DNA of 64,000 bases from Norana najaformis (Eukaryota > Annelida > Clitellata > Crassiclitellata > Hormogastridae). The stretch covers positions 29,107,087 to 29,171,086 of the forward strand of contig OZ029916.1 in NCBI GenBank assembly GCA_964023275.1, in the 5' to 3' direction. Every line of letters begins with the position of its first letter. Position 1 is the first letter of the stretch. Positions 38,316 to 63,574 of the stretch are shown piece after piece. Under the pieces are notes generated by a model. It worked only from the letters and a program-made list of their open reading frames with translations, was not told the origin of the DNA and searched no databases. A program made the position numbers and the translations under genes.

Positions 38316-38405
38316 CGAACAGAATTATGCCAAAGCTCTAGAAGAATCTCAAGGACACGGCGAACAGAATTATGCCAAAGCTCTAGAAGAATCTCAAGGA
38401 CACGG
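38316..38405 (+). repeat. 45-bp duplication inside one satellite unit
   Basis: 38316-38360 and 38361-38405 are identical 45-base copies (starting CGAACAGAATTATGCC). The junction is at CACGG|CGAAC, where GACACGG and GACGGCG share short homology. It is the only length variant inside the array body. Confidence 0.95.
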
Positions 38406-39663
38406 GGGGCCAGCCCATCCAAACCAGGAGGCTTCGGATGTTGGGACACATCGCACGTTGCGACGGCGAACAGAATTATGCCAAAGCTCTAGAAGAATCT
38501 CAAGGACACGGGGGGCCAGCCCATCCAAACCAGGAGGCTTCGGATGTTGGGACACATCGCACGTTGCGACGGCGAACAGAATTATGCCAAAGCTCTAGAA
38601 GAATCTCAAGGACACGGGGGGCCAGCCCATCCAAACCAGGAGGCTTCGGATGTTGGGACACATCGCACGTTGCGACGGCGAACAGAATTATGCCAAAGCT
38701 CTAGAAGAATCTCAAGGACACGGGGGGCCAGCCCATCCAAACCAGGAGGCTTCGGATGTTGGGACACATCGCACGTTGCGACGGCGAACAGAATTATGCC
38801 AAAGCTCTAGAAGAATCTCAAGGACACGGGGGGCCAGCCCATCCAAACCAGGAGGCTTCGGATGTTGGGACACATCGCACGTTGCGACGGCGAACAGAAT
38901 TATGCCAAAGCTCTAGAAGAATCTCAAGGACACGGGGGGCCAGCCCATCCAAACCAGGAGGCTTCGGATGTTGGGACACATCGCACGTTGCGACGGCGAA
39001 CAGAATTATGCCAAAGCTCTAGAAGAATCTCAAGGACACGGGGGGCCAGCCCATCCAAACCAGGAGGCTTCGGATGTTGGGACACATCGCACGTTGCGAC
39101 GGCGAACAGAATTATGCCAAAGCTCTAGAAGAATCTCAAGGACACGGGGGGCCAGCCCATCCAAACCAGGAGGCTTCGGATGTTGGGACACATCGCACGT
39201 TGCGACGGCGAACAGAATTATGCCAAAGCTCTAGAAGAATCTCAAGGACACGGGGGGCCAGCCCATCCAAACCAGGAGGCTTCGGATGTTGGGACACATC
39301 GCACGTTGCGACGGCGAACAGAATTATGCCAAAGCTCTAGAAGAATCTCAAGGACACGGGGGGCCAGCCCATCCAAACCAGGAGGCTTCGGATGTTGGGA
39401 CACATCGCACGTTGCGACGGCGAACAGAATTATGCCAAAGCTCTAGAAGAATCTCAAGGACACGGGGGGCCAGCCCATCCAAACCAGGAGGCTTCGGATG
39501 TTGGGACACATCGCACGTTGCGACGGCGAACAGAATTATGCCAAAGCTCTAGAAGAATCTCAAGGACACGGGGGGCCAGCCCATCCAAACCAGGAGGCTT
39601 CGGATGTTGGGACACATCGCACGTTGCGACGGCGAACAGAATTATGCCAAAGCTCAAGGACAC

Positions 39664-45411: not shown

Positions 45412-45680
45412 AGAGAAACCACCTGAATTTCTACAAACCCTTTGGATGTTTTGGGTGCTAGTTTTATAAATTAACAAATGGAGATAAACCAACTGAATTT
45501 CTATGAACCCGGGATTATTTCGTTCTGGCTGTCACTTCATCATTAAGAAGTGGGAACATCTCACCTGAATTTCTATGAACCATGGGCTGTTATGGCATGT
45601 CTGCTGTTTAGTATGAACAACTATTAACAAGTGGAAGAAACCAACTAAATTTGTATGAATCCTGGGCTATTTCTGCCCGG
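45412..45680 (-). repeat. Degenerate 70-80-bp tandem repeat overlapping the stop codon
   Basis: Four units share AAACCAACTGAATTTCTATG and AACCC(T/G)GGG, with the CTGAATTT core at 45423, 45493, 45565 and 45645. The right-hand unit reaches the TAG stop (45667-45669) of the minus-strand gene, so the array lies in its 3' UTR. Confidence 0.8.
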
Positions 45681-48600
45681 TTCTGCTGTTGCGTTTCTTG
45701 TCGAGCATCAGTTTGCCAAGAAACCTAATCAGAGGCAGTTTGCTGGCGAAATCTTTCCTCGCTCTGCCACTGGCGACATCTTTCGAATGTTCGAGCTCAT
45801 TTCCGCCTGCGCAAAGATCTTGTGGATCATCCAAGTGGTCAGAGTTACCAGCCGGATAACCATCGGTGGTAACGGATCCTTCGGGGCTTTCCGCACTGAC
45901 TGTTACTGTCATTCCTTCTGCGCTTCGATGTTCAAGTCCGTGGTCCTCGTGGTCGTGGAGTGCCTTCATCGAGTGAAGTAGCAGGAGCTTCTGACGGGTC
46001 TGAGTGGTAGAGCCGCCTCGCGATGGAGTCGTTTGGACTGGGTTCTGTCTGTTTCTTGTCTCTTGATCCTGCAGACACCTCCTGGCCAGCGCCTCCTGGT
46101 AGATGAAGAGATCTTCAGGAAGATTCTCCGGATGGATGAGACCCTCGTTTAGCAGCTGCTGCATGTGGACCAGTTCATCGACCGAGTAGCTCTTCTTACT
46201 CTCCATCATAGCCAGTCGCTTCTCTCGGACCGTCATTCCGGCAAACACCACGCCTGAATGACCCGACCCTACCGGAGCCTGGTGTTGGCGACGGTAAAGA
46301 ACCTCCTTGTCCTTAACATCGTCTGTACCCGTGTCGCATGATACGCTTTTCTGCTGAGCAAACATCTCCCGTCGGTCCGTTCTGGTCGTCCTATCCGTCT
46401 TCATGAACCCGGCCAGGCAAGTGCTCGATTCCTCTATGCTGTGGCACTTGGCCAAATGGACTGCCCCGGCAAGGGCGTTCCTCCCGTCCTGACCCAACAC
46501 CAGTCGCTTCTCTGGCGATTTTCTACGCCATGTTACGACACCGTCCGATACGAGCTCTCCGAATTCACCTCCATCGTCTTCGTCATCGACGACCTTCTCT
46601 TCCATCCTTTGCGTTCCTACCGATGACTCAGCAGGATCCGCGACTTCAGCAACATGGGGTCGAACAGCAGCTGGTTGTACAACCTTTCGTTCTTGTGCTG
46701 CACTCCTGTCCGACTTAGAAGCTCTTTCTCTCTCCATCTGGCAGCCTCTGTCTCTTTCTGCGTGAAAGCCACTCCTATCATTGTCTCTCTTGGTAACTCT
46801 TTCTTTGTCTATTTGCAGATTTCTCGTTCCGTCGAGTTCCGAGGTGTTGGCTTTACACTGGCCCGTTTCGTTGATCGGACTTCTTCGTTTCACCCGGTCG
46901 TCCGTAGTTAGGACCTCCTGTCGGGAACGTCCCAGTATCTGTATGCGGCCGGGAGGCCTTTGATCTCTCAATTTGTCCAGCACCAGTTCCTTTGTCTTTG
47001 CCGCTACCTGCGATCTCATAGATGATGATTTCCTCGGCTCACTGCTTGATCTGCTATCGACCGCAGTCGCCTTTCTTTCGTTACAAAGTCCCGATGCGTT
47101 AATGGTAGAATTTTTACCCGAATGTCTTTCAAGCATGACTTTGGATTTCAGCTGCGGGTCTTCTTTGAAAGGCTTTTCAAGCGTGGCTTTAGATCTGTCC
47201 GACAGTTCCTGTCCTGTGGGTTTTTCATGTGCAGTTTTCAATTTCTCATTGGTCTCGTTTTTGGCATATCGTTCATGTATGTCCTTCAACCGTTCCACAG
47301 GCTCCTCTTTGCCGAGTCTCTGACCCGATATTCGCATGTCAAGCGTGTCCGTTCTGGGATCGGGAGCTGGAGATAGTTGACTGGTTCTTGATTCCAGTTT
47401 CACCGACTTCATCGTCGGCACATCTTCACTGAACCGTTGCTGCTGTGACTGCAGATGGTCTTGTCTCCTGACACCCCGCAGCCTCTGCGTCCTTGGCGAT
47501 ACCTCTCTAGTCGGACTCTTCCTGGCACCATAAGATTTGTAGTCTTCTGGCATCTCCGGTACCAGAGTCTTCGGACCGTAACAAGAGTATGCGGAAGCGG
47601 CAAGGCCCTTGATTTCGGGACTCGGTCGACGATCACGAGTTGTCTGGAAGGACGCCTGTTCGCAGGACAGCGAGCGCTGGTTACCGAACCCCATCCTGCG
47701 CCCGGCGGACCCAGTCGTAGCAGGTGCTACGGCACAAACTCGAGTTGCGTTGACGACAGCTGTATAAGGCGCTGAGTCGGCGGCTTCAAACTGCAAGGCC
47801 GTCGCGCAGTTTGGCTGGGCCGGTTCGATTTCGAATTCCTCGATCTCATTTTCGTCGAAGTAGTCCCGCATCCGGTTAACCTTGACCACCGGTTGGTAGA
47901 CGATCGGGGCGCTGCCGTGCGTCCGGTCGGAGGCGGAAGTGGTGGAGTCGCTTCCATCTTTGACAACTTTGGAGTACTGGTTCACTTCGTAAGAGAAGCT
48001 CTTCTGACCGGCGAAGCAACGTCGTTTACTTCGCGTGGATGAGTCAGCGGGGCCTGGAGACATCCGGGGCGAATCAAGTTGGCCGTAGGAGATGCGAATC
48101 TCTGGTGGCTGGGACTGTAAGGATGCCACTGCCACAGCAGATGTGGGTTGCGTTTGAAGCAGCTCTACCAGTTCATTGTAGCAGCACACTTGGTTGATAT
48201 GTTTCTCCAATTCCGGGCCCTGAATGGGAAGCTGCGGAAGCAGTCTCCCACGGGGCTTTGGCGCCTGGAGCGCCGATGCGGCAACTGTAGGCTCTGACTG
48301 CTTCCGGTGACAGGCCGTTTCCGTCTTGGTCTGTTGACTTGGCACCTCGCATGAGAAACTCTTCTGATCGGCAAAGGCTGCTCGTTTGTCACGGTGCGAC
48401 AACTCCTTCATTGCGAAGCCTCCCGCAGGACCCCGTTGCGTCGGAAACAGGCCTTCGCGAGCGATAACCTTCAGCCGCTGAGATCCAGTCGGATGCGTCT
48501 CCACGGTCAACTGCCTACGCGGCGACCGGCTCTGGATGGAGTTTGTGTCTTGGAGTAGGACGAAGTGCTTTCTGGAGACGGTCATGGAGAGCATTGGGTT

Positions 48601-49262
48601 CCTAGAGGATAGATTACAAACGTCTCGGTCTATGTCTTGTGGTTGGTGACGTCTGGCATCGTCCGGCCTTCCCGCCTGCTGTTCGTAGTCGTCGAGCGAT
48701 CTGCTCTTGCGCTGCTGCTGCAACCGCAGTCTCTTGTCCTTCACCGTTGGGCTGATGCAACCTGTCTCCGCGCATCTTCCTCCAAGCGCTGCCTGCTGTG
48801 GAAACTGACCGTCACCTTTGCTCGAACTCGTACTTTCCTCCAGACTCGAATCGAGCGAGTGGCTTCTCCTTTCTTGTCTGATCCACGCCTTTCGTCCACT
48901 CTCCACCTCGCCAGCCCTCCCTGCCACTCCTTCGCCAGGAATCGGCTTCGGACCCTCATCTGCAGCAGTGGCCTTTGACCTCTCGCAACTGGGTCGGACG
49001 TCGGCCACTTCGTAAGACTCGTACGATGACCCGCTGTCCATCTGAAACATGGAGGGTGGAGGCCGCAGTCGCGCTCGGTAGGCGTTGGGTTTCGGAGCGG
49101 CCGACACCGGAACTACTAGGACCTTCCTGCGGTCGTCGACCGGGGACCACATTCCGGATCGCCAGGAGAAGTCGAAGGACCGACTCTTTTGCTTCTGGCC
49201 GATCCAGACCTTGCGTCGGTCCGACGGATCCGTCTGGTCGACTGCGACACCCATTCGCACGT
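45667..49262 (-). CDS. Terminal exon of an unidentified gene with repeated Q[KR]SxS[CLFV][DE] motif
   Basis: One open frame of 1,197 full residues to TAG. A minus-strand acceptor TGTTCTTTGCAG|AC at 49263-49264 sets the exon start, so the in-frame Met at 49278 is probably intronic. The protein is hydrophilic, rich in Ser, Arg, Glu and Gln, with no membrane segment or recognised domain. Eight motif copies occur: QKQKSRSFDF, QERRSHSLDS, QQQRKSRSLDD, ADQKSFSCEV, AGQKSFSYEV, GNQRSLSCEQ, AQQKSVSCDT and ESKKSYSVDE. Most follow a basic pair and an aromatic residue (for example KRRCF, RRMGF, RREMF). The best-structured part follows the last copy (LVHMQQLLNEGLIHPENLPE and DLFIYQEALARRCLQ), probably helical. 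Each motif looks like a basophilic kinase site. The exon at 55555 has a ninth copy and matching phase. A large cytoplasmic scaffold or receptor tail is a guess. Confidence 0.85.
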
Positions 49263-49457
49263 CTGCAAAGAACAGCAAACGACGGATTCAGCGAAAGTCA
49301 TCAGAGGTAACGTCTGCGTCTTAAGAGCAGAACTTCAGCATGGTTAGAGTGGCCAAAGAAGTGTACTGTTCACTCATTCATTCATTCATTCGTGCATTCA
49401 TTTGTTCATTCATTCAGACAGCAAACACGAACCATTTAAAAGATATCCAGTTAGAAG

Positions 49458-49754
49458 CCAATCTCGGAGATCGTTGAGACAAAACGGGTGTTTGGGCACT
49501 TTGCACAAGGCGACGGCAGACAGGACCATGCTAGGACTCTCCGAGACTTGCTTGTTGGCCCTCCTAGGACCTGGAAGAGGCCGGTCGGACGACCAAGACA
49601 CACATGGATCCGGAAGGTCGATGCGGATCTTCGGCCGCTGAACCTTTGAGCTGCATGCAGCCTGGAGGCGAGCCCAGGACCGTGACGGTTGGCGGAGAAT
49701 TGTGGAAACGGCAACGCTCCAGAGAGGGGCATGCTATTGTTGATGATGAGTTAG
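49458..49754 (+). mobile_element. LINE C-terminal relic
   Basis: The plus strand encodes ISEIVETKRVFGHFAQGDGR, RTLRDLL, WKRPVGRPRHTWIRKVDADL, then after a one-base frame change ELHAAWRRAQDRDGWRRIVE and TATLQRG. It is the end of the same LINE group as 41535 and 35585, with a GATGATGAG remnant tail. It lies about 200 bases outside the big minus-strand exon. Confidence 0.85.
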
Positions 49755-50039
49755 AAGCCGAGCGAATGAAAGAGGTTTTGCAGCATTGAGAAAAGGCGCA
49801 CGAAGACGAATGAAATCTAGAGGATATGCTGGTCACTGGTACGGAACACTACCTGGTTAATCTGACAGCAAAGTAACTTAAAACAGGCGAATTACTAAAT
49901 TAATTATTAAGGTGAAGTGTATTTCCGCACTCGGCAGTTTTCGTATTTTACGTATTTTGGCCTAGATGTCGCTTCAGCGGTTTTGAGAGGTTCTTAATCT
50001 CAAACTTTTGAACGGAATCGCAGAAAAGATCTTGGAAGT
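49755..50039. other. Intronic spacer
   Basis: Short stretch between two LINE relics, with nothing recognised. Confidence 0.5.
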
Positions 50040-51165
50040 TTAATTTAATTTTTTTATTTATACAGAACACTTATATAGCGCCCCTTCAAGAAAACTAATC
50101 AGAAGCGCTCCCAAACCAACCTCGGCGAAAAAGAACAGTCTTAAGAGAAGAATAGAAGATAGAAGTAAAATCCCAGAGTAGAAGACGCAGAGTAACAGGA
50201 AGTCCATTCCAGAGGGTTGGGCCAGCAACAGAGAAAGCACGACGCTGCATGGTCGAGGTGCGAGCGCGAGGCACTAATAGATTACCACTAGCAGCGGAGC
50301 GAAGAGAAGCACGTCCCAAATTGGACCGGATAGGTAGGCAAAGCTCCCTCAAGTAAGAGGGGCAAGACCCAACAAGGCGTTCCAAACAAAGACGATGACC
50401 CTATAGTGGATACGCTGGCTCATAGGAAGCCAGTGCAACTCATCTCGCATGAAATCAGAGACATGACCAAACCTAGAGATGCCACCAATAAGCCGTGCAG
50501 CCGCCCGCAACACACGTTCCAGGCACAAAAGCCGTACATCAGGGAGTCCTACATATAAAGAAGAGCAGTAATCCAACCGACAAGTGACAAATGCATGAAC
50601 CAGAGTCTTAGATGAGGTGACTGAGAGAGAACGTGAGACAACACGAAGTTGCCGTAGCTGGTAGTAGCAACTACGACAAAGACGATGTACCTGAGCCTTA
50701 AAAGAGAGCTCCTGATCGAACTCAATGCCAAGGTCATTAACAGTGACTGAGAAGGTAATGTGAGGAAACTCTAGATGCGGTACAGGCAGATTGATTTTAG
50801 CCAATTGCTGCCTAGTGCCCAACCAAATATATCGAGTCTTGGAAGGATTCAATCGATTTGAAGACATCCAAGCCACAAGGGAGTCAGAAGCACAACATAT
50901 AGCTCGAACAGCAGCTGCGGCATCAGAAGCAGAACAATGAACATAGACCTGCACATCGTCGGCATAGGACTGGCTTGAAGCCGAGCACGCGGCTAGCAAA
51001 GAGCTAAGGTCAACAGTAAACAGTATATAAAGCAAGGGACCCAAAACTGACCTCTGAGGCAAACCAAACAAGGAAGGAACCGAAGGTGCGGGATAGGCCA
51101 TAAACCACACAGAGCGTGCGCTCAGATAGAAAAGAGGCCAACCAATGAGACATTTTCTGTTAGGG
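50040..51165 (-). mobile_element. 5'-truncated CR1/L2-like LINE with reverse transcriptase C-terminus
   Basis: Minus-strand frames encode SERTLCVVYG, LPQRSVLGPLLYILFTVDLS, QSYADDVQVYVH, MSSNRLNPSKTRYIWLG, RLDYCSSLYVGLPDV and LHWLPMSQRIHYRV. After a frameshift near 50370 come SYLRELCLPIRSN, GPTLWNGLP and SSLKTVLFRRG. YADD is intact, but the PQG motif reads PQR. The 3' UTR ends TATATAGCGCC at its left edge. Its end matches the short copies at 3453, 5057 and 40745, making it the best source element for them in this window. Confidence 0.9.
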
Positions 51166-51730
51166 CTAAACCTTTTGTTGTCGTTTTACTTTGTCAAAAC
51201 TCCTACAAATCCGAAAAGATCCGTTAGTTGACGTCAGGAAATAGCCCTGGCTGATACTGCTAGGACTTGCCTGATGGAAACGGAATTAGTGTAAAGGCTA
51301 CTTTAGACCCTCTAGGGACTCGCAGTAGCCGCCTGGTCTGCTTATGCGAGAAGGGACGAAACAGGCTGTGCTCGGATCAAGATCGCCAGCCGTTCGCTAA
51401 CTACAACCTGTAGCCCCCGTCAAAAGTCGAGGACAGCTGGCACGACGAACCGGTGCAGTGAAAGGACGGAAAGCTGCGTAATTGGAGTTGGGGTTATGGA
51501 TCCCCTGGGGCTCGGCCTACCCTCGGCAAATAGCCCGATCACGTGCCCATCAGCAGATTAAGGGCCCGAGGGCGCTGAATTAATTCAGTGCGGCGAAAGA
51601 GAGAAAAATAACACAGAACAATAACAGCAAGGACTTCGGAATTTCCAGTACGTGGCACTTAAGTTGGGAAAGAACGAGATAATCGCATGTAAGCGAATGT
51701 TCACACACTAATATGTTGCTTTCAATATAT
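51166..51730. other. Intronic sequence, GC-richer patch
   Basis: From about 51230 to 51600 the sequence is GC-richer than its surroundings, with no ORF of note and no tRNA fold I could build. It may be a further repeat abutting the LINE truncation point. Confidence 0.35.
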
Positions 51731-52025
51731 TTTTGGGTGTGTTTCATGAAATGTGTATGCATGTGTATGTATGCATATGTGCATGTACATACATGCACGC
51801 ATGCATACATACATACTTAGATGCATGCATACATATGTACACTCACACATGCATGCATACATACATGCATACATACATATACATACATGCACATACACAC
51901 ACGTCTATGCATGCATGCATATATGTGTACATACGTAAGTTCATACATACTTGCGTACGTGCATGCATGCATACATTAATACATACATACATGAAAACAT
52001 ACATACATGAATACATACATGGAAA
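51731..52025. repeat. (ATAC/ATGC)n microsatellite region
   Basis: Alternating ATGC, ATAC and ACAC units. Cys/Met/Tyr/His-rich frames on both strands are artefacts of the repeat. Confidence 0.93.
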
Positions 52026-52419
52026 AATGTACAGCACTGAACACAATTGAGTATTACGTGATATACAAGGTGCAATTTGTAAGGACAATGGGAACTTCCC
52101 TCTCATTGCTTAGGCTGGAAGGCATTTTCCAATTAGTTATTCCCTTCCCATAGTCCTTTCGCCTGGATCTCAACGACAAATCAGGGTGCGATTTTTCAAC
52201 CGAGGAAGGGAAATTTGTCATCAGTGGTTCGGTCTACAGACAACGGGATCCAATTTCACTCTTATTTAGTGAGTAGCGAGTCTAAATATATTTATTTCCC
52301 ACAGCCTCCAACCACAATTCGTACTTTGCGAAACTAGGTTTGCTATCCTCTTACCATAGACACCAGCGCCTTCTGAACCCAAACATGATGACTATGGATG
52401 TACATATTTATCTAGACGC

Positions 52420-54291
52420 TTAACCCATTAGTGCCCCGCGTCCGTTATAACGCACGCTTAGAAAACAAGTTGCCAAAATTACGGGCAATAGTATATATAG
52501 TAGGCTGTTCACTAATTTTTTAAAAATGTTTAGCCGTTGATCTATAAAATCCACTATTGTGCTTGCCGGATGATGTCAGTTGGAGACATCTCTTGGTTTG
52601 GTTTTGCGTCTGCTACAATTAAGCATGTCGAAAAGCTTCGTTACCGCTAGTAAGTACATCTTTATTTGTTCTTGACCAGAAATTATTTAAAGAAATTTTT
52701 ATTGGTGTTAATAGTAGCCATATGGATCCATACGTTGACAAAATACTATGACAATCACTGCATATTTTACCATGGAAATTTTCACTGCAATGTTGGCGTA
52801 CGTTTTAAAGGACGACGGGCACTAGCCCGTGTGCCGCCATGTTTTATCCACAGTAAAGTCACCAAGCCTCATTGTCCCAACAGTAACACCTATCACAGCA
52901 TTACTTGCAGTGTGAAGTAACTGTTAGCTAGAAATCTGTTTAGACTAGCTACTCACTATTTTGTAGTCCCCTAGAATGAGCACCATCGGCGAACTATTCG
53001 CAGCCTAACCCAAGACAGCCCAAGGAAAAGAACACAGAGCCCTAACAGTCTAATGTCTCATTTACTATTACTGATAAAAGTTAACGTTTAGTGTTTCTTC
53101 AGTACTGCCCACAAGGCACTGCTTGAAGTTGTAGCACAATTAGAAGAACACAATAGTGACCATTATGATAACAACAAAAGCTATGGCACAATTGACATCT
53201 TCGAACAGCCACCAAACAATGAAAGCGTGCTAACTGATGAAGACAGTGATAAGTCGGATGATGAGTACAAGTTCAATGTTAACCATTTGGGGCGCAAATT
53301 GTTGTCAGCTCCATGTGAAGTCCGCAGACAGATCCTTCCAACAGATCCAGACGCCAGTGACACATGCATGGACAATGGCGGGCCTGCTGACATAAAGAAA
53401 CCGAGAGACAAGGTTGGCAGTCGTTCAGAAGATCATATGACTTTAGATCATGCCTCCGACGTTCAGATGATGCGCCGGCATAACAACATTGTTGTTACCA
53501 TTGCATCAAATTTTGGGACAGTAGGAGAAGGTCGTGTGCAGAGATAGTCACTGAGCCACAAGAAAGTCAGATCTGTTTCGCATCCTACCATGTTCCACCT
53601 CTACAATCAAAGTATGGGGGCGTTGATCAGTTAGATCAGCTGGTTGTCACAGAACACGGATCAGGCAATGGAAATTGTGGTGGCTAATCTTTGTATATCT
53701 GTTCGATGTAACATTGGTCAATGCGTGATATCTCTCTCGCAAAGTTCACAGCGGCGGCGACAGTTTGTTTGACTTCAGGTGGCAACTAGCTGTAAGTCTA
53801 CTCAAGTGCTATGGTGTGCCATCCATCCAAGGTCGATGTGCTCCTGCTGTACTATCTTATGTAAGGTACCATGGTAATAATCACTAGATTGCACGAGGAG
53901 ACACAGACCGTCGTTGCAAGGCTTGTACGAAGAAGACAATAGGGCCTATATCGTTGTGAGAAATGTGATGTAGGTCTTCATCCTGACTGTTACAAGTACT
54001 GTCACACTGCATTAAACCTCATATAGTAAATAAATATGACAAATCATCAAAATCATTCTGGAAACATTGCATGATATAGATTATCAGGCTTGATTCAGTG
54101 ACAGTAACCTAAGTTATGGCTATCACTGGGCTTGTGCCCGACGTCCGTTATAACGGACAGTATGTAAAGTACATGTTGCAGTTGGTAGCAATAAATAAGT
54201 TATCAGCAATGTTACTGCACTAAATTGTTGAGATTTCTGAAACTATAACTTAATCTGTTCAGTTTTACAAATTTGGGCACTAATGGATTAA
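52420..54291 (+). mobile_element. piggyBac-type DNA transposon, internally deleted
   Basis: TTAA at 52420-52423 is followed by CCCATTAGTGCCC, and GGGCACTAATGGA is followed by TTAA at 54288-54291. These are inverted termini matching at 12 of 13 positions, with the TTAA duplication diagnostic of piggyBac. TCCGTTATAACG occurs just inside the left end and again near 54142-54153. The element is about 1.87 kb and keeps parts of a transposase gene but not its central catalytic region, so it cannot be autonomous. Confidence 0.92.
52625..54027 (+). pseudogene. piggyBac transposase remnant
   Basis: A possible short 5' exon (MSKSFVTA, donor CTA|GTAAGT at 52650) is followed by an acceptor TTCTTCAG near 53103. 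The next frame reads ALLEVVAQLEEHNSD, DEDSDKSDDEYK, then jumps to DHMTLDHASDVQMMRRHNN and IVVTIASNFG. After a stop, SHPTMFHLYNQSMGGVDQLD carries the late Asp-containing MGGVDQLDQ motif, and RCEKCDVGLHPDCYK the C-terminal zinc-finger. The stretch with the first catalytic Asp residues is missing between the N-terminus and the MMRRHNN region. Several stops occur, and the short first exon does not join in frame. Confidence 0.85.
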
Positions 54292-55554
54292 TGTAGCGTC
54301 TTTTAAGAAAGTCATAAGAGCACTGCCTACGCTAACTTCAGTCGTGGCAAAGTTTATTAGTAACAAAAAGTTCATCTATAAGCGAATATTGCTCAGAAAA
54401 TTATGCAAGTCCAACACTAGAGGGCTCTCGCACACACGTAGAGACCAACGAACGAAAATGCACGTGCCCACAAGAGTAAGTGCTCCCAAATGCTCACACA
54501 AAGCCACATACGGACAGAGCAAGACACACAAATGGACATGTCCTCACATAGCTCAATGCACGCAGACGAATATCTCCACCACTCAATCCCACAACTGGGA
54601 TTTAGGCTGCTACCGTAAACACACGACGCTCAGAGCAGCGCACAAATTCCGGCTCTTCAGCAGATAAAAATCAAGGAACCAGATAGTATAGCATGGCGTC
54701 CGATGAGAAACCAAATCAAGCCCGGGTGACTAAAGTTCCGAGAATTATTGTGGTTTGTTTTATGTGGAATGTTCTTTTTCTTCTAAAAATACAGTAGAAC
54801 TGTGCTATCGCCACCGTTTGCTACCGCTTCTTCGTTCGTCAAAATCCTGTTTTGTCCTAGTTACGATTGCATAAATGCAAAATGCTTTGCGACTGCATGG
54901 TATTCCATTTTCCCACAAACTAATATGTTGTTTCCTAGCAAATTTCCCTATCAAGGCAACAAGGTACTCCAAAATGCGCCTCGAAATTGTGCGGAGTCGG
55001 AACCAACTTTGCCCGAGAACCGATTTGTCATCACATCGGTCTACAGCGCTGAACAAGACAACATGTGGCTGCGCCGCAGAAGCCGCTTTGCTTCTAGGTC
55101 GTTTGTTTGTGGTAGGGACGAGCGTTGGGTGTGGACCAGGTGGTAGTTATTAGCCGAGGTTATGACGGCTGGAGGACTGCACGTCTCATGATTGTCTTGA
55201 CGTCTTTCAGTCTACGGCCGAGAAGAATAACGAAGAACCGACGCACATACATGACGATATTAAGCTCTAATTGCACGCATACAAAACTTACCTGCACTGG
55301 CATCAAAAAACGCATTATGTGTATATCAACACGCGGAGACAGACCGTTGTTTAATGTGCACTTTCGGTCGATAAGATGATGATGAGACGACGCAGATGAT
55401 GAAGACGACTACGACGATGATCATGATGATTAAGATCATGTTGTAGACAAAGTTAACGGTGATGGCAATGATGACGTTTAGGATGGTTTTCCACTACAGG
55501 TGTAAGTGGTGCTGCGCGGTGCAAGTGGTGATGTGTCTGTGAGTGTGAGCTGAC
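54292..55554. other. Intron or intergenic between the piggyBac element and the 55.5-kb exon
   Basis: Frames of about 80-115 codons exist on both strands near 54344-54667 and 54802-55153 but show no domain or codon pattern. GATGAT-type simple repeat occurs at 55376-55470. Confidence 0.5.
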
Positions 55555-55686
55555 CTTCGCCGGGCTTGACCTTGGTTGCTCGGACCTCATCGGAATCGTC
55601 GTCCTCTTCGTCCTTTTCCGTTTCCGATGGAGATAGGTCTCCACATGAGTAGCTTCTCTGGTGCAGGAAGGACACCTTCTTCCGCT
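55555..55686 (-). CDS. Upstream exon of the repeated-motif gene
   Basis: A 132-base minus-strand exon. The acceptor GTTGTTAACACAG|AG is at its right edge and the donor GAAG|GTCAGC at its left, phase 1 at both ends. It can join the 49262 exon in frame (GAAG + ACGTG gives E-D-V). It encodes RKKVSFLHQRSYSCGDLSPS, a ninth copy of the motif with the same basic-aromatic-Q-[KR]-S-x-S-C order, then an acidic stretch (EKDEEDDDSDEV). The donor lacks a purine at +3; a weaker alternative, CCT|GTAGTG at about 55500, would keep the same phase. Confidence 0.65.
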
Positions 55687-55689
55687 CTG

Positions 55690-56142
55690 TGTTAACAACA
55701 CGGCAACAGAACAAGAACAAAGCGATCACCAAATTGCCTTACATTACATTACACTAGAATTAAGGAGATCTCGCACTGCCCCACTTTCCCCTTGTAAAAT
55801 TGTATCTAGATAGGCTAAATGCAAAAGGCGCTATACAAACGCTGAGATAAAAGTAAAACTAGGGTAACATAATTGTTTATGCACCTTTATAGAAGCCCAT
55901 CAAAGGCGTAGGTTCGGGACCCTATGGATCATTCGGCTGAGGTGCAAACATGACCAAAGCAATTTTTGACGACAGGACATCTGTCATGTGTCCGTAGTGC
56001 GCTGGTGATAGAAAGGATTGCAAACTAAAACTGAATCAGATGGCCTGATATTCCATAGGCTTTCACTAGCCATGTACTAACCGCGCTCGCGCTGCTTAAC
56101 TTCACTCTCTTCCCAGTGTTCCATCAAGCTGCCACCCTGATA
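55690..56142. other. Non-coding stretch with a LINE-tail-like fragment
   Basis: Near 55827-55843 AAAAGGCGCTATACAAAC is the reverse complement of the TTTGTATAGCGCC 3' end, so a small plus-orientation LINE end is likely. GGTTCGGGACC at about 55911 resembles a B-box, but no A-box is visible. Confidence 0.4.
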
Positions 56143-56230
56143 CATGCATATAAATACATACATACATACAAACGTACATACATAAAAGCAGACAGACAGA
56201 CAGATAGACAAAAAGACAGACATACAGACA
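56143..56230. repeat. (CATA)n and (CAGA)n microsatellite
   Basis: Tandem CATA units change into CAGACAGA units. Confidence 0.92.
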
Positions 56231-56459
56231 TTTATGCATTGATTCTTAGAAACAAATGGCTAGTGACAAGACATGTTAAGTCCTATCCTTTGTAACTGTT
56301 TCTGAAACAAAGAAAAGGACGATATTAAGGTAAATTATGGTTTGACAACATTTATTTAACGACATCGTCATATTGAGATGATTGGTGTAAGGTAAATAGT
56401 AAATGTAAATGTGCATGGCTTTATATAGCGATGGTATGACCTCGTTCTTGTTCAGCCCG

Positions 56460-56785
56460 TTTGAATTGGTGCCAAGCCATTTAAGGTTTCCGTGCTAGCC
56501 AGAGACTGGGCCATAACTGGAAACTTCGCTTGGATATTGGCCCACCACTGGAATGGACTACTGTCTTCTGACTCAAGGGCACGACGCCACAACTTCCGCT
56601 ACGTCGTATGTCATTTATTCTAGTGTAGCTCCTTTCTTTCCCCCTCTCAATGTTCCCAGGCGCCTGAAGACTGTACTGTTTAACAGTAATTTTACTTTTT
56701 GGGGTGGAAGCACCTCTGTTGATTTCATCCTCTAAGAGGCGCTTAATAAATCTCAAATTACAATTACAGTTACAATTAGCATAAT
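56460..56785 (+). mobile_element. LINE 3' end, plus orientation
   Basis: The plus-strand frame ends VPRRLKTVLFNSNFTFW, matching SSLKTVLFRRG of the 50040 relic and RLKTLLF of the intact LINE. It is followed by AGAGGCGCTTAATAAATCTC and a (AATTAC)n tail at about 56755-56779. A 5'-truncated copy. Confidence 0.75.
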
Positions 56786-57673
56786 AATTGAACACACAGT
56801 ACATCACTGATATCAATCAACATCACAACTCTCAACGATGTTATGGGATGTTCCAAGAGAGAAAACTATTATCCTTGAGATAAACTGATATTTTATTATT
56901 TGAATTTTTTAATACTGACTTTTCGGGGTGTTTTCTTGTGTTTTTCCTTTTGGTTTAGGTATTTTTAGGTTTTTAAATACCAACTTCGATATCGATTTCG
57001 GATTCTCTACATATCGCGATATCGGTTTGGCTCCCATTAAACCGACCCAGCACTAGGTCATCACACATCGACGCTACAGAAGTTCCTAACTATGTAATTA
57101 TATATTTATTTATGAGTTCTTCAGTTTCGTTTGTGTTAAATATCTAGAAAAGAGAAATTAGGTCTCGCATTAGCATGAAAACTTCTTTTGACGTATTCCT
57201 CTGAATGACCGACAAGAATTAACAATGATTCTGACCTAGAAGAGGTGTTAAGAGGGAAAGTTTTCTGGCCAATTTATAGGGATGTGAACGAACTTATGAG
57301 AAGGCGAGTATGTTAAAAGCTTTTCATGTCTAGATTTGTCTACTGTGGAAGTGGCGTGTTAAAGGAGTCTTTGAAGTAAGTCAAGGAGAAAATTCGAGAT
57401 CACAGACATGCATTAGGCCTTTATGCCATTAGCGACTAATATGTAGAAATCGCAGGCAAAGCCCGAGAGCCAAGAATTCAGGACTGTGAAGCTGGGCTTG
57501 CCAAACAGAAATTTGCTTTAAAAAATATTAATAAGTCTAGAGGGCCTATATCGAAAGTCTGTAAGTTTTCTAATTAGCGAAATGATAGTAAACTTGTTGC
57601 GGCCTTTTACAGAAGACCAATACATAAAAGAATGCCTTGTGAAAGCGAATGAAATTTTATATTCTGGTAAATT
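56786..57673. other. Non-coding, nothing recognised
   Basis: AT-rich DNA without an ORF of note or a repeat I could align. Confidence 0.5.
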
Positions 57674-57749
57674 TTGTTAGCGTCTTAGAATATCAGACTG
57701 ATATTCTAATAAGCTAACAAAAAAACCCGATATTCTAAGACGCTAACAA
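57674..57749. repeat. Perfect 21-bp inverted repeat with a third, imperfect arm
   Basis: 57674-57694 (TTGTTAGCGTCTTAGAATATC) is exactly complementary to 57729-57749. Between them, 57700-57720 (GATATTCTAATAAGCTAACAA) is an imperfect copy of the right arm. The left arm can therefore pair with either, giving two alternative hairpins. Confidence 0.95.
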
Positions 57750-57923
57750 CTGATGCTCTGGATAAGTGCTCAAAGGAAATGACTAAAACTAATACATGTA
57801 AGATATTATCAAACTATAGTTTCTAAACAGATAGTAAATTTACTTTTACTAGTGTATTGGGTTCCTCTTAATAATTTCTCCACATTTCACTAACTTTTGA
57901 ATCGTTGAATGAAAGGGATTAAG

Positions 57924-57995
57924 TAATGCTGGCCGCAGACTAATGTACTGATCTTCACTTGGCCGTCGGTGTAATATGAATTTGAGATCACTTGA
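57924..57995 (+). repeat. tRNA-like SINE head, copy 2
   Basis: TAATGTACTGATCTTCACTTG and, further on, GAATTTGAGATCAC match the copy at 6632-6712 in order and spacing. Confidence 0.5.
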
Positions 57996-57999
57996 TTAA

Positions 58000-58362
58000 A
58001 ACATCCTGTATTACCAATGAATCTAGGAGACACAACGAATAGGGGACTAGAGTGGAACTTCCTCTTCACTGATTCAGACCAACCGTCCCCATTAGACTGG
58101 TTTGCAACATCCCAAAATGACAGACATTCTTTCAGCAATTTGTACCCCGAGGGCTCAGCTTCAGACCCAAACAGCACTACCTTCATGACCTCAGACTCCA
58201 CAGGCTTTCACAACTGCTACACATTTTCAACTACAGTTGTCATTTACGAGAAAGTTGCAAGTTTGCGAATCTCTTTGTCACACCTAAGATTAAACGCCGA
58301 CTGTTTAATAATAGTTGCTATGGCAACAGCAAGCAACAGAATGGACCCAGTCACCTGAATAA
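58000..58362. other. Stretch with overlapping open frames, unassigned
   Basis: A 113-codon plus-strand frame (58017-58358) and a 103-codon minus-strand frame overlap. Neither has a known motif. It adjoins the 3' end of the intact LINE. Confidence 0.3.
58314..58327. promoter_or_regulatory. X-box-like palindrome
   Basis: GTTGCTATGGCAAC is one base from the palindrome GTTGCCATGGCAAC bound by RFX factors. No promoter is defined nearby, so it may be chance. Confidence 0.3.
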
Positions 58363-58518
58363 TCGTAATCGTAATCGTAATCGTAATCTCGAAATTTCTA
58401 CAGCGCTCAACGAAAGCTAAGTCGCGGGAACCAGCTTATTCACAGGCGCTCAGTCAAAACAAAATCGATAGGCAAAAGGGTCAAGATCCAGGAGTCAGGC
58501 ACTCAGACAGTCGGACGG

Positions 58519-61500
58519 CTACGGTGGATGCTGTTTGAAACTGAAGCGAGAAGAGAGACAAGAGGAAGAGGAAGAATCAGGATAAGATTTTTGGAAAAGA
58601 AGTGTTTTCAGTCTTGAGTGAAAGACCTGCGCAGAAACTGAAAGAGGTGAAGTGTTGGTGAGTTCGTATGATTGACCAGACAACTGTCGCAATTCTGGCG
58701 GGAGTTTATTCCAAAGGGGTGGGGCAGCTATGGCTATGGAGCGATTTCCAAATTTTAAGGATGAGGTGACGGGAGGGCGAAGAAGTGTTAGGACAGATGA
58801 GGAGCGGGTTGAACGGAGTGGTTGGATAGTAAATAATTGACGAAGATAGGAGGGTTGGGAGGATTGAAGTGTGTTGTAGGTGAGGGATAAGACTTTGTAC
58901 TCTATTCGTTCTGGTATTTTAAGCCAGTGCAGTGATTTGAGAACAGGGGTGATGTGATGGTATTTGGGGGTTTTGGTGACAGCACGTGCGAGAGCATTCT
59001 GGATAGCTTGTAGGCGATTTATCTGGGTTGTGTCAATATTGAGGAAAAGTGAATTGCAGTAGTCAAGTTTTGCATGGACTATGGATGTGGCAATGATAGA
59101 TGCGGTTTTGAAGTCAAGCATAGGACGGATTCTGCGAAGGTCGCGGATATGCATAAAGCAAGAGCGGGAAAGATGGCTGATATGATCAGAAAAAGTAAGG
59201 TTCTGGTCGAAAATAACACCTAAATTACGGACAGAGGAGTTAGTATTAAAGGTGTGGGTGGAGGCAGAGTCCAGGCTGAGGGAGATAGAGGGGTCAGGAA
59301 TTTTCTTCAGCTGGTCACGTAGGCCTATAAGTATGAATTCAGTTTTAGATGGGTTCAGGCATAAGAGATTAGATGTCATCCAAGAGGAGATTTGTTTAAC
59401 CACACAAAGAAGATGATCTGTAGATTCATTGAAACAATTTGGAGAGAAAGAGATGAATAGTTGGGTGTCATCAGCATAGAGGTGATGGTCAACGGAGGAT
59501 GCTTTAATGAGTGAACTGAGTGGGGTAGTGTAGAGGATAAACAGAAGAGGTCCAAGAACGGAGCCTTGTGGAACTCCGCAAGTAAGAGGGCATGACTTAG
59601 AAGAGGCTTCCGAAGTTTTAACAGAGAAAGAGCGGGAGGAGAGATAAGACTGTATCCATAGGAGAGCAGTGTCAGCAAAACCAAACCAGGTTGAAAGTCG
59701 GTGGAGTAAGATATTGTGATCTATGGTGTCGAAGGCTGCAGAGATATCGAGGAGACAGAGGCAAGAAACCTGTTGATGAGAAATGGCAGAAACAAGCTTG
59801 TTGTAGAGAGATGTCAGCAGAGTTTCGGTTGAGTGGCGTTTAGTAAAACCAGACTGGTGTGGGTTAATGAGTGAGTTAGAAGCTAAATAGTTATTGATTC
59901 GAGAGAGGACAATCCGTTCAGTTAATTTGGAGATGAAAGTCAGGTTAGAAACAGGCCGGTAGTTAGAAAGGATTTCCTTGTCGAGAGATGATTTCTTGAG
60001 AAGAGGGGTAACAAGAGAGTGTTTAAAAAGAAGGGGAAAATTTCCAGTAGAGAGAGAGAGGTTAACTATTTTGGTAATAATTGGAACAAGGACAGATGCA
60101 CAGTCTTTCAATAAGGAGGTAGGTATAGGGTCAAGTTCACATTGTTTGTTTGGGAGAGATTTTAGCAGATTTAGTATTTCGGTCTCTGATGTAGGTTGAA
60201 AAGCAGAAAATGAGGATCGAGGTGGGGAAGGTGGACTGTCATAGGTGGAAGAGGGAGCATCAGCAGCTGGATTGTTGGAGGTTTTGGAAAGTAGAGATTG
60301 AAGAGAGAGACGGAGGGTACTAATTTTGTTCGAAAAGAAAGAACAGAACGAGTCGGCTATTGAAGAAGACGGAAGAGAATTTGGAAGTGGACTAGATGAG
60401 TTCCGATGGAGGAGCTGGTTAATAGTTTTCCAGAGAAGGCGAGGGCTAGAGGATCGAGAACGAACTAGTGAGGAGTAAAATCTTTGTTTAGTTGCAGTAA
60501 GAAGGCGATGGTATTTATTTGTGGCAGATTTAAGGGCAGAGAGAAGTTGAGGATCCCTGGTGCGTTTATAGGCACGCTCAAGGCGTCGCCGGAAAGATTT
60601 GAAGGCCTGGAGATAGGAATTGAACCAAGGATTGTTAGAGTGAGAACGGGATTTGGTAATAATAGGAGCATGCTTGTCAAGGATAGTGGAAAGAGTGGTG
60701 TTATATGAAGAGAGAAGGTCATTCAGGGAGGAGGGTGGATTTAACACGAGATCAGAACAGGAAATATCTTGTGTGAAGGCTTCAATATTTATTGAACTGA
60801 TGCGACGAAAAGAATGAAAGACAGGATCAGGACGTGGTGTCGGAAGAATGTTAAGATATGTAAAGATGGGGTAATGATCAGATGGCGAGTCAAAAGAGAA
60901 AGATATATCAGGTGATAGAGTGGAGAACGATGACGTGATAATGAGGTCAAGTGTGTGATTGTGAATGTGGGTGGGGAATTTGACATGTTGAACCAGATTA
61001 GTTGAGGACAATAGGGTGAGGAATTCAGAAGCAAATGTGTCAGAGGGGTTATCGACATGTATATTGAAGTCACCTGTAATCAGAAATTCATGAGGTGTAG
61101 TGGCGGCAGTAGAGAGGAGGGTGGTAAATTCTTTCAGGAAGACCGATGGAGGACTTGAATATGAAGAGGAGGATGGAGGGCGATATACATTAAAGATAGT
61201 CAGATTTGTGTGAGGAAGTTTAAGCGTAACTGATGCACATTCAAAAGAGTGGAAACAGTAACCAGGTGAGTCTAAAACTGTGGCAGGTTCTCGGGTGAGA
61301 AAGGCAATACCACCGCCAGTTGGATTTTTATGAGAAGGGCTAGATGGTTTGCAAGGACGAGGTGTACTGTAAAGATGGTAGCCAGGAGGAATACAGTCTT
61401 CATATTGAGCAAGAGTGGTGTTTAAATTAAACCAGGTTTCAGATAAGGCAAATATGTCAGGCGGGTGAGAAGAGAGGGCTATATCACTGATTTCTTGTGA

Positions 61501-61944
61501 ATGTGCAGGATGTAGTAATGATCGAATATTTAGCGTGCAAAGTAAGAAGCGGTTGTTGTCAGTATTTTGAGCATTGTCGAGGATGTTGGAGGAAGAAATT
61601 CTGGAAGGAGGAGGACAGGTAGGAGGTGAGGGAGGAGGACATGAATAAAAATCCAGTGGGCCAGGATTTGGGTGGATGTCCCCGGAAAGCAGGATTAGTA
61701 TGTTGAAGATGGTATGGCGGGTGAGGTGCTGTGGTGGTCGCCTGAGAGATGAAGTTAGGAAGAACGATAAAGGAATAAAATACATACGTCCATACTGCAT
61801 AGTCGCAGTGCCAAATTGGGCGCAGTAAGAATGTTTGGCTGTAGGAACAATGTAGGGCAAGCGGGTGTGGAAGGGTTGGCAACTAATATGGAAGGCGATC
61901 ATGAAACGTAGACCGAAAATAAGAAGAATGATTGAACTGTACAT
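58519..61944 (-). CDS. LINE ORF: endonuclease and reverse transcriptase with N-terminal 2A-like peptide
   Basis: 1,141 residues. Residues 1-87 form a hydrophobic leader that ends NILILLS, followed by GDIHPNPGP at 88-96, a 2A-like motif. An apurinic-type endonuclease domain spans about 133-365, with LNIRSL, SETW (168-171), GDFNIH (291-296) and SDHYPI (355-360). The reverse transcriptase spans about 590-890, with NYRPVSNL, LLDISAAFDTIDH, GVPQGSVLGPLLF and YADD (823-826). The C-terminal part has LDYCNSLF, LHWLKIPERI, PPLWNKLP and RLKTLLF. It copies the LINE by target-primed reverse transcription. No separate ORF1 is visible. The first Met at 61944 is the most upstream in frame; a later start would remove part of the leader. 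Confidence 0.95.
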   Translation of the reverse strand: MYSSIILLIFGLRFMIAFHISCQPFHTRLPYIVPTAKHSYCAQFGTATMQYGRMYFIPLSFFLTSSLRRPPQHLTRHTIFNILILLSGDIHPNPGPLDFYSCPPPSPPTCPPPSRISSSNILDNAQNTDNNRFLLCTLNIRSLLHPAHSQEISDIALSSHPPDIFALSETWFNLNTTLAQYEDCIPPGYHLYSTPRPCKPSSPSHKNPTGGGIAFLTREPATVLDSPGYCFHSFECASVTLKLPHTNLTIFNVYRPPSSSSYSSPPSVFLKEFTTLLSTAATTPHEFLITGDFNIHVDNPSDTFASEFLTLLSSTNLVQHVKFPTHIHNHTLDLIITSSFSTLSPDISFSFDSPSDHYPIFTYLNILPTPRPDPVFHSFRRISSINIEAFTQDISCSDLVLNPPSSLNDLLSSYNTTLSTILDKHAPIITKSRSHSNNPWFNSYLQAFKSFRRRLERAYKRTRDPQLLSALKSATNKYHRLLTATKQRFYSSLVRSRSSSPRLLWKTINQLLHRNSSSPLPNSLPSSSIADSFCSFFSNKISTLRLSLQSLLSKTSNNPAADAPSSTYDSPPSPPRSSFSAFQPTSETEILNLLKSLPNKQCELDPIPTSLLKDCASVLVPIITKIVNLSLSTGNFPLLFKHSLVTPLLKKSSLDKEILSNYRPVSNLTFISKLTERIVLSRINNYLASNSLINPHQSGFTKRHSTETLLTSLYNKLVSAISHQQVSCLCLLDISAAFDTIDHNILLHRLSTWFGFADTALLWIQSYLSSRSFSVKTSEASSKSCPLTCGVPQGSVLGPLLFILYTTPLSSLIKASSVDHHLYADDTQLFISFSPNCFNESTDHLLCVVKQISSWMTSNLLCLNPSKTEFILIGLRDQLKKIPDPSISLSLDSASTHTFNTNSSVRNLGVIFDQNLTFSDHISHLSRSCFMHIRDLRRIRPMLDFKTASIIATSIVHAKLDYCNSLFLNIDTTQINRLQAIQNALARAVTKTPKYHHITPVLKSLHWLKIPERIEYKVLSLTYNTLQSSQPSYLRQLFTIQPLRSTRSSSVLTLLRPPVTSSLKFGNRSIAIAAPPLWNKLPPELRQLSGQSYELTNTSPLSVSAQVFHSRLKTLLFQKSYPDSSSSSCLSSRFSFKQHPP
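61657..61683 (-). other. 2A-like peptide site in the LINE ORF
   Basis: It encodes GDIHPNPGP at residues 88-96. The 2A consensus is D-(V/I)-E-x-N-P-G-P, with the peptide bond skipped before the last Pro. Here Glu is replaced by His. 2A-like sequences at the N-terminus of CR1/L2-type LINEs are known from sea urchins and other marine invertebrates. Confidence 0.8.
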
Positions 61945-62050
61945 TATGTGATCTAAGATGACGTGGCAGTTTGATGAAGCTAAAATGGCGGAAGGTAAAG
62001 ACGCAGGCGAACGAGTGCAAAAAGGACAAAAATTAGGCGAATCTTAAGTT

Positions 62051-62989
62051 GATTAAATGTTGAAACAAATAGGAACGAACTCACCAAAGACAGAGCATAA
62101 ATCCGGTAAGAAAGAAAAATTAAAAAATCAGAAAAGACGTCGAAAAGTTAGAAAATATAGAATTGAGAAATAAAGCGCAGTTATAAGCATAGTTGTTACT
62201 TAGCGGACTGCGCAACCAAGAATTCTATTATTCCTGGTCTTGCAAGACGGCGAAGTCTTTTCTCGGCAAATTGGTCAGAAATTACCTCAAGAGGGAGTCA
62301 TACCGCAGCGCCGCCGTGCGGCATAACGACTCGACTATACACACCGCCGAAGATTAAAATGACCACCGGAGGTCGCTACCTACATGAAATATTCACGACT
62401 AGGGCGCAAGATGTCGCCACTAATCCAATGAGGCGAGAGAAATTAAGTTCGCCTCTGGGGATATAATTATATTTCTGCATGTGTTCTGCACATTTCCCCG
62501 CCTCTGAGTACGAAAGTATAAGCAGTTATGGCGAATCTTGTCTTTAAAATGCATACGCCTTGGAGCAAAGGCATAAACAGCCAGTGAGATAACGCAGTAA
62601 ATGCCCGGCCACAATAGAATAGATTAAGCCTATAATACAATACAATGTAGTATTATAAAATAAAAAATACAACAAAATAAAATACGCAGATCAAGAAACT
62701 TTACGCAATAAGTTTAAATACCAAAATGCATGCAGTTGCAATGGAAACTACGTAGTACTGCATAAAACGCCCGTAAGATGTTATTGTAATTTGAAAAGGT
62801 TATGATATCACAAGCCCCCAAATGGCTAACACCATACGCATAACAGACGTCCACTACATCCGGTCATCGCTCGCGGATTCCAAATGGTCAACCTTTACAG
62901 AAACACAGCGCAGCGATGCATAAGGGCAATCTTTCTTATCTATTGCTGCATTACGCAGCACTTGTGGCATTTGTAAACTACGCTACTAA
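62051..62989. other. LINE leader or flanking DNA, no gene recognised
   Basis: From 62180 to 62450 the DNA is GC-richer, with a GCCGCCGTGCGGC palindrome near 62313. Minus-strand GGCGACATCTTGCG (about 62402) and, closer to the ORF, CCGCCATTTTAG (about 61986) resemble YY1 sites. This may be the LINE 5' UTR with an internal promoter, but the 5' boundary is unknown. Confidence 0.35.
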
Positions 62990-63125
62990 ACTAAACTAAA
63001 TTTCTCCAGCACCCCAAAAAACTAGGCCGTTAATACTATTTTATTCACAGGTGCTTCATAAAAATTGGTAAGACAGGTAAGAATCAGGTTCGGTTCTTTG
63101 TCAAAATCTAAAAGTCAGGCATGGA
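62990..63125 (-). repeat. Diverged copy of the ATTACG-tailed LINE 3' UTR
   Basis: AAATTTCTCCAGCACCCCAA, TTATTCACAGGTGCT, GTCAAAATC and AGTCAGGCA occur in the same order and spacing as at 58392-58503 in the intact LINE. Confidence 0.65.
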
Positions 63126-63574
63126 GGTAGACCAGGTAGACATGCAGACTGTTGTTAGATATAGTGCGATGAGAAAGATAATACGAGGAAGATGCTGGAA
63201 ATGATTTTTAAAGTACTCCGTTGGCGCACTGATCATTTCATTAACGTGAGGCATGTAGGGGTTCTTAGCTTGCCCAAGTTCGTTACATAGTTTATATGTT
63301 TAAGTAAGCAAGAGTCATTGCAGCGTTAATTTAGAAAACTGCGATAATAAGAAATGAAACATGGCATTTGTAACATGGCAGTAGTGAGACAATTTAGTCT
63401 CTCTAGTGTTGGTTATACGTTCAGTATTGTGTTTAAACTCAGCTGGCAGGGCAAGTTCAGTAGGCGAGCTGCTGCTATGGACACCTAGTGAATTGTTTTT
63501 AGAACCAACTGATCCATATGTCTTCTTTTTGTATCATATTGCACCGCTTTGCCATTGACACATTGTATAAAGCC
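63126..63574. other. Non-coding, nothing recognised
   Basis: No ORF, RNA gene or repeat supported. The left part may be decayed LINE coding sequence continuous with 62990-63125. Confidence 0.45.

What the first reader, a model, noticed from the sequence alone, without database searches (positions are those of the whole stretch)
45667..55686. A large unrecognised protein built around nine copies of a Q[KR]SxS[CLFV][DE] motif
Seen in sequence: eight copies in the 3.6-kb minus-strand exon and one in the exon at 55555-55686, joined in matching phase. Most copies have a basic pair, three residues, an aromatic, two residues, Gln, Lys/Arg, Ser, any, Ser, a Cys or hydrophobic residue, then Asp/Glu. 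Spacing is irregular (about 15 to 430 residues) in otherwise disordered sequence, so this is selection on a short motif rather than recent tandem duplication. Inference: each is a docking or basophilic-kinase site and the protein is a multivalent scaffold. I know no family with this array.
Basis: partly seen in the sequence, partly recalled or inferred. Interest (0 to 1): 0.75.

Follow-up and report, generated by a model that had tools for sequence, protein, structure and literature searches.

The report
Animal protein with nine phosphosite-like repeats
An uncharacterised, mostly unstructured animal protein carries nine copies of a short basic-aromatic-serine segment that look anciently duplicated and kept by selection, most likely as repeated phosphorylation and docking sites on a scaffold, although no relative was found to test this.

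Summary
The array is real. Two minus-strand exons (55555-55686 and 45667-49262) join in phase and encode 1241 residues with nine copies of [KR]SxS[CLFYV][DEG] (0.1 expected; most in 20,000 shuffles, 3). A motif-blind 14-residue search also finds it (z 11.5). All nine have a basic pair and a large hydrophobic residue upstream, against 1 of 24 other [KR]xx[ST] sites, so the unit is about 14 residues, longer than a kinase consensus.

New here: the first Ser is AGY in 8 of 9 copies and the second is TCN in 9 of 9 (elsewhere 32 of 110 Ser are AGY). The copies probably descend from one unit by old duplication. Linkers share nothing. No Pfam, NCBIfam, PDB, viral-contig or prokaryote-genome relative was found, but no animal proteome could be searched, so novelty is unproven. 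Best reading: a multivalent, basophilic-kinase-phosphorylated docking array on a disordered scaffold, working like the SAPAP repeats or the CFTR 14-3-3 sites. The partner is unknown; the 14-3-3 proline is absent in 9 of 9.

The parts
45667..49262 (-). Exon B: last coding exon, eight motif copies, stop codon at 45667-45669
   Evidence: Open frame and AG acceptor with a pyrimidine tract; length and 3-base periodicity beyond dinucleotide shuffles
55555..55686 (-). Exon A: 132 nt, phase 1 intron on both sides, motif copy 1
   Evidence: AG/GT borders, phase match to exon B, full unit match
49263..55554 (-). Intron between exons A and B, holding a likely LINE fragment (reverse transcriptase match below the Pfam cut-off) and a TACA microsatellite
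55640..55681 (-). Copy 1 KKVSFLHQRSYSCG
49171..49212 (-). Copy 2, core QKSRSFD
48850..48891 (-). Copy 3, core RRSHSLD
48691..48732 (-). Copy 4, core RKSRSLD
48346..48387 (-). Copy 5, KRAAFADQKSFSCE
47986..48027 (-). Copy 6, KRRCFAGQKSFSYE
47659..47700 (-). Copy 7, RRMGFGNQRSLSCE
46333..46374 (-). Copy 8, RREMFAQQKSVSCD
46177..46218 (-). Copy 9, core KKSYSVD, running straight into the C-terminal segment
46051..46185 (-). Segment from the second Ser of copy 9 onward (SVDELVHMQQLLNEGLIHPENLPEDLFIYQEALARRCLQDQETRN; borders chosen by eye). The 80-residue window that holds copy 9 and the start of this segment has the highest share of order-promoting residues (0.34) of 21 windows; no family match except a sub-threshold Dmrt1 hit

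Best explanation
A protein-coding animal gene, convergent with a CBP/p300 gene, encodes a mostly disordered scaffold (at least 1241 residues) with nine copies of a unit of about 14 residues: basic at -11 of the second Ser, a large hydrophobic residue at -7 or -8, then usually Gln and [KR]SxS[CLFYV][DE]. Shown: the array exists, exceeds chance and is sharply bounded (nine copies and no graded tail). Well supported: the copies are paralogous, made by old duplication, and their serines were held by purifying selection while linkers and synonymous sites randomised.
For: Count 9 against 0.10 expected, maximum 3 in 20,000 shuffles. Motif-blind 14-mer search z 11.5 over 40 shuffles. Leave-one-out: each of 9 copies ranks first among all untrained windows. 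The next best window scores 6.2 against 14.9 for the weakest copy. Upstream basic pair and hydrophobic in 9 of 9 copies, 2.8% of positions overall, 1 of 24 control sites. Ser codon classes: first Ser AGY 8 of 9, second Ser AGY 0 of 9, rest 32 of 110, Ser after K/R elsewhere 6 of 19; Fisher first versus second P = 0.0004. Between copies pS 0.80 (random windows 0.76) but pN 0.34 against 0.73. Basic at -3 in 9 of 9, acidic at +2 in 8 of 9. Disorder-like composition in 16 of 21 windows. Precedents for many phospho-reader sites on one chain: nine 14-3-3 sites in CFTR, six in LRRK2 (PMC12017986, passages); SAPAP 14-residue repeats binding the PSD-95 GK domain (PMC9740047, passages).
Against: No phosphorylation, expression or partner data. 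No homologue, so conservation across species is untested. Six of nine copies have Lys, not Arg, at -3. pN was measured on a motif chosen for likeness, and the upstream pattern was set after seeing the copies, so both contrasts are partly circular. The second Ser alone does not differ from the rest in codon class (P 0.11). One copy (7) breaks the first-Ser codon class. A 14-residue unit could bind something with no phosphorylation at all.
Confidence: 0.45

Rival explanations
1. A specific version of the best explanation: a phospho-dependent ligand array for a MAGUK guanylate-kinase (GK) domain, each pSer being read by a Dlg or PSD-95 type GK domain, as with the SAPAP 14-residue repeats and LGN.
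For: SAPAPs use 14-residue repeats to bind the GK domain (PMC9740047 passages). Crystallised GK ligands carry the pSer (or Asp/Glu) in a short helix, with Arg at -3 or -2 and hydrophobic contacts such as +1 and -4 in some (PMC9005747 passages). Copy 9 (KSYSVDELVHM) looks like the LGN ligand as I recall it.
Against: No SAPAP homology domain in the C-terminal exon. The LGN likeness is recalled, not computed. For several ligands it is Arg, not an acid, at +2 that matters. The conserved basic pair near -11 is further out than the ligand positions seen.
Confidence: 0.15
2. A specific version of the best explanation: a multisite 14-3-3 client, as CFTR or LRRK2.
For: [KR]SxS in 9 of 9 matches the start of the mode I motif (mode I recalled); 14-3-3 motifs overlap basophilic kinase sites and many real ligands lack the proline (PMC8786283 passages). 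CFTR has nine sites.
Against: Proline at +2 in 0 of 9 copies, acidic instead in 8 of 9. The long conserved upstream part is not needed by 14-3-3. Canonical sites elsewhere, 2, are at chance level (1.14 expected).
Confidence: 0.15
3. A specific version of the best explanation: a CaMKII-type substrate or pseudosubstrate array, with basic at -3, hydrophobic at +1, acidic at +2.
For: [KR]xx[ST] hydrophobic [DE] occurs 11 times against 1.05 expected, 0 of 1000 shuffles reaching 11; the CaMKII preference is recalled, not read here.
Against: Lys at -3 in 6 of 9; the strict Arg version occurs only 4 times (0.79 expected), two of them outside the copies. Eight of the 11 are the copies themselves, so this is not independent. 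Does not explain the residues at -11 and -7.
Confidence: 0.12
4. A phosphorylation-controlled membrane or actin contact, MARCKS-like: basic and aromatic residues bind, phosphorylation releases.
For: Basic plus hydrophobic plus two Ser in each unit; Cys next to the second Ser in 4 of 9.
Against: Acidic at +2 in 8 of 9 lowers the unit's charge; the MARCKS comparison is recalled only.
Confidence: 0.08
5. Phospho-independent short docking motif for a folded partner; the two Ser are contact residues, not phosphosites.
For: The conserved unit is longer than a kinase consensus.
Against: Basic at -3 fixed in 9 of 9 fits kinases well; nothing else specific.
Confidence: 0.2
6. On origin: convergent gain of a short motif without duplication.
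For: Linkers share no similarity (mean z -0.07 before and 0.37 after, 28 pairs of copies 2-9, one pair above 3). Mantel test of likeness against order not significant (P 0.20). Missing lattice points not enriched.
Against: Ser codon classes are shared; neighbours are more alike than chance at P 0.039; starts sit near multiples of 55.8 residues at P 0.002-0.006.
Confidence: 0.15

Closest known systems
SAPAP/DLGAP (GKAP) 14-residue repeats
   Same: Several short units of similar length on a scaffold, phospho-Ser read by a partner domain (shown there; inferred here)
   Different: No SAPAP homology domain in the C-terminal exon; nine units over more than 1000 residues; acidic at +2; no sequence match shown
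CFTR and LRRK2 as multisite 14-3-3 clients
   Same: Nine (CFTR) or six (LRRK2) 14-3-3 sites on one chain
   Different: No proline at +2 in any copy; long conserved upstream part; no transporter or kinase domain in the two exons
CaMKII-type phosphorylation sites (recalled)
   Same: Basic at -3, hydrophobic at +1, acidic at +2
   Different: Mostly Lys at -3; extended upstream unit
MARCKS effector domain (recalled)
   Same: Basic, aromatic and Ser together
   Different: Dispersed units with acidic +2

Membership tests
SAPAP/DLGAP | C-terminal GKAP homology (GH1) domain | tested here: not met
   Pfam scan of the long exon whole and in pieces, E up to 10, gives only a sub-threshold Dmrt1 match
SAPAP/DLGAP | 14-residue GK-binding repeats matching the SAPAP consensus | not tested
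   No SAPAP repeat alignment was at hand; a profile of the nine copies found only one weak phage-protein match in the PDB (E 1.3; chains under 20 residues are not in that library)
14-3-3 clients | Canonical Rxx[pS/pT]xP at the repeated site | tested here: not met
   0 of 9 copies have Pro at +2; 2 canonical sites elsewhere, 1.14 expected. Many known clients lack the Pro
14-3-3 clients | Phosphorylation-dependent binding to 14-3-3 | not testable with these tools
   Needs a binding assay
CaMKII substrates | Arg at -3, hydrophobic +1, acidic +2 (recalled) | tested here: inconclusive
   Arg 3 of 9, Lys 6 of 9; acidic +2 8 of 9
Any Pfam, NCBIfam or PDB family | Match above the curated cut-off or E at most 0.001 | tested here: not met
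   (NCBIfam and PDB were given the long exon or parts, not exon A alone)
Duplicated-unit protein | Units related by descent | tested here: met
   Ser codon classes; weaker: adjacency P 0.039, lattice of 55.8 residues P 0.002-0.006; Mantel test not significant
Duplicated-unit protein | Similarity of the linkers as well | tested here: not met
   Mean z -0.07 and 0.37 over 28 pairs; missing lattice points not enriched, 8 of 36 shifts as good

The most novel reading that the evidence does not exclude
A so far undescribed animal scaffold family whose repeated unit joins a docking element (basic pair plus aromatic) and a basophilic phosphosite in 14 residues, multiplied by ancient duplication of a segment of about 56 residues, perhaps once as phase 1-1 exons like exon A, to give a nine-site phosphorylation-counting platform with its own dedicated reader.
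Probability: 0.15. Interest if true: 0.6.

Novelty: new member of a known kind. Interest (0 to 1): 0.4.

Why it matters
If the units are phospho-docking sites, the protein is a nine-valent regulated scaffold with a readable evolutionary history, and short peptides from it could fish out its kinase and reader directly. The Ser codon-class test is a cheap way, needing only one genome, to tell duplicated motif arrays from convergent ones. If an animal database gives the family a known name, the finding becomes ordinary.

Tried and rejected
Relatives: viral contigs (1 pattern match, none confirmed) and prokaryote genomes (41 pattern matches, none confirmed) gave none; neither is a place where an animal gene is expected. 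Pfam, NCBIfam and PDB gave none above cut-off, whole, in pieces or as a nine-copy profile. The Dmrt1 match (15.3 bits against a cut-off of 22) is taken as chance. Upstream minus-strand DNA at 55687-58520 and 62000-64000, three frames each, gave no Pfam match above cut-off, only two sub-threshold ones (Fijivirus_P9-2 E 0.52, FAM176 E 0.24). The stretch between them is a LINE and was not scanned for host exons.

Peptide strings in the literature: none of six strings from the copies is in any held paper. A looser search found no paper holding three of its five terms, which says little about each string. Both cover only the held open-access library.

Periodicity of 55.8 residues was noticed after seeing the spacings. 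P is 0.0018, 0.0034 and 0.0062 for three period ranges (5,000 null sets each), but the missing lattice points are not enriched (8 of 36 shifts as good), so I treat it as a hint. One search's 'before' flank test had a slicing error for copy 1; both flanks were redone without copy 1. The split into two spacing types (copies 1, 5-8 and copies 2, 3, 4, 9) is by eye. Codon usage against presumed CBP exons did not single out the coding frame clearly (0.674 against 0.668 and 0.596), so it is no support. An AATAAA lies 334 bases after the stop, but AATAAA occurs 81 times in the window against 66 expected, so it is weak. (bacterial promoter scan) was irrelevant. A six-frame scan of the window gave 21 core-like places, the nine copies and 12 others (16.8 expected by chance); by eye none of the 12 has the upstream part, and the best, at 25465 on the plus strand, sits nine residues after a stop. 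PP1 RVxF (copy 1 only), LC8, LIR, SH3, PKA and C-terminal PDZ patterns were not above chance.
Full report
What is there. The minus strand of 45667-49287 is open for 1206 codons. An acceptor (tttgcag) places the start of exon B at 49262. A 132-nt exon A at 55555-55686 is flanked by AG and GT and has a phase 1 intron on each side; it joins exon B in frame, giving 1241 residues from the first full codon of exon A to the stop. The frame is real: 1197 codons against at most 312 in 300 dinucleotide shuffles, and a 3-base periodicity score of 68.7 against at most 15.9 in 200 shuffles. The neighbouring plus-strand gene, pointing towards it, is CBP/p300: bromodomain and histone acetyltransferase matches in Pfam, and matches to CBP and p300 chains in the PDB, TAZ2 entries among them. 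The window is therefore animal or close to it. The species is not known.

The array. Nine places match [KR]SxS[CLFYV][DEG], at residues 10, 69, 176, 229, 344, 464, 573, 1015 and 1067. Shuffles give 0.098 on average and at most 3 in 20,000; local shuffles at most 2 in 5,000. Because such a pattern is chosen after the fact, I ran a motif-blind test: every 14-mer as a seed, scored by its eight best other matches. The winner is DKRAAFADQKSFSC, 234 against a mean of 159 and a maximum of 177 in 40 shuffles (z 11.5; with 8-mers z 5.2). In leave-one-out tests each copy ranks first among untrained windows, and there is a wide gap between the weakest copy (14.9 bits) and the next window (6.2 bits). So there are nine, with no tail of half-copies.

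Relative to the second Ser, position -11 is Lys or Arg in 9 of 9, -3 is Lys or Arg in 9 of 9, -2 and 0 are Ser in 9 of 9, and +2 is acidic in 8 of 9. A large hydrophobic residue stands at -7 or -8. The arrangement of basic pair, two residues, hydrophobic occurs upstream of 9 of 9 copies but at 2.8% of positions and at 1 of 24 other [KR]xx[ST] sites. This pattern too was set after seeing the copies.

Origin. Ser has two codon families that one base change cannot bridge. The first Ser of the unit is AGY in 8 of 9 copies; the second is TCN in 9 of 9. Elsewhere in the protein 32 of 110 Ser are AGY, and 6 of 19 after Lys or Arg, so context does not explain it (first versus second, P = 0.0004; first versus rest, P = 0.0007; second versus rest, P = 0.11). 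Independent gain would mix the families. The copies therefore most likely descend from one unit, with the Ser kept throughout. Synonymous positions between copies differ as much as between random windows (pS 0.80 against 0.76), so the duplication is old. Starts fall near multiples of 55.8 residues (P 0.002-0.006 by range) and neighbours are somewhat more alike (P 0.039). But linkers show no similarity, the missing lattice points are not enriched, and likeness does not fall significantly with order (P 0.20). Exon A, a symmetric 1-1 exon of 44 codons with one unit, may resemble how units once spread; that is conjecture.

How it probably works. Composition puts 16 of 21 windows on the disordered side; residues 361-440 exceed the boundary most, and residues 1021-1100, with copy 9 and the start of the segment after it, have the highest share of order-promoting residues. 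A basic residue at -3 in all nine copies fits basophilic kinases acting on the second Ser. Phospho-Ser readers that use such sites in number are known: 14-3-3, with nine sites in CFTR (PMC12017986, passages), and MAGUK GK domains with the SAPAP 14-residue repeats (PMC9740047 and PMC9005747, passages). Neither fits fully: the canonical 14-3-3 proline (PMC8786283, passages) is absent in all nine copies, and there is no SAPAP domain. The acidic +2 with hydrophobic +1 recalls CaMKII sites (from memory), but -3 is Lys in six. The kinase atlas (PMC9876800, passages) was consulted and did not settle it.

Limits. No animal sequence collection could be searched; the genome search tool did not complete (eight tries) and structure prediction was off. 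Calling the family new would go beyond the evidence. A literature search for six peptide strings found nothing in the held open-access library only.

Noticed in passing
35722-39655: About 37 copies of a 106-bp unit at 100% identity, with a 45-bp register shift near 38312-38405: a very recent tandem expansion, or an assembly artefact. The translated unit (RRLRMLGHIARCDGEQNYAKALEESQ) resembles the tail of a LINE reverse transcriptase as I recall it.
   Followed up: partly
58519-62043: A LINE on the minus strand with one open frame of 1174 codons holding endonuclease and reverse transcriptase domains: probably young, upstream of exon A.
   Followed up: partly
about 10011-18705: CBP/p300 gene on the plus strand: bromodomain and histone acetyltransferase and TAZ2 region matches span this stretch; it points towards the gene studied.
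   Followed up: partly
53092-53547: Plus-strand open frame of 151 codons in the intron, reminding me of the acidic N-terminus of piggyBac-type transposases; no Pfam match.
   Followed up: partly
55555-55686: Exon A is phase 1-1 and exactly 44 codons, so it could be skipped without breaking the frame.
   Followed up: no
47035-47052 and 48289-48306 (minus strand): RSSSEP and RKQSEP (residues 781 and 363 of the joined protein) are canonical 14-3-3 patterns outside the array; their number is at chance level.
   Followed up: partly
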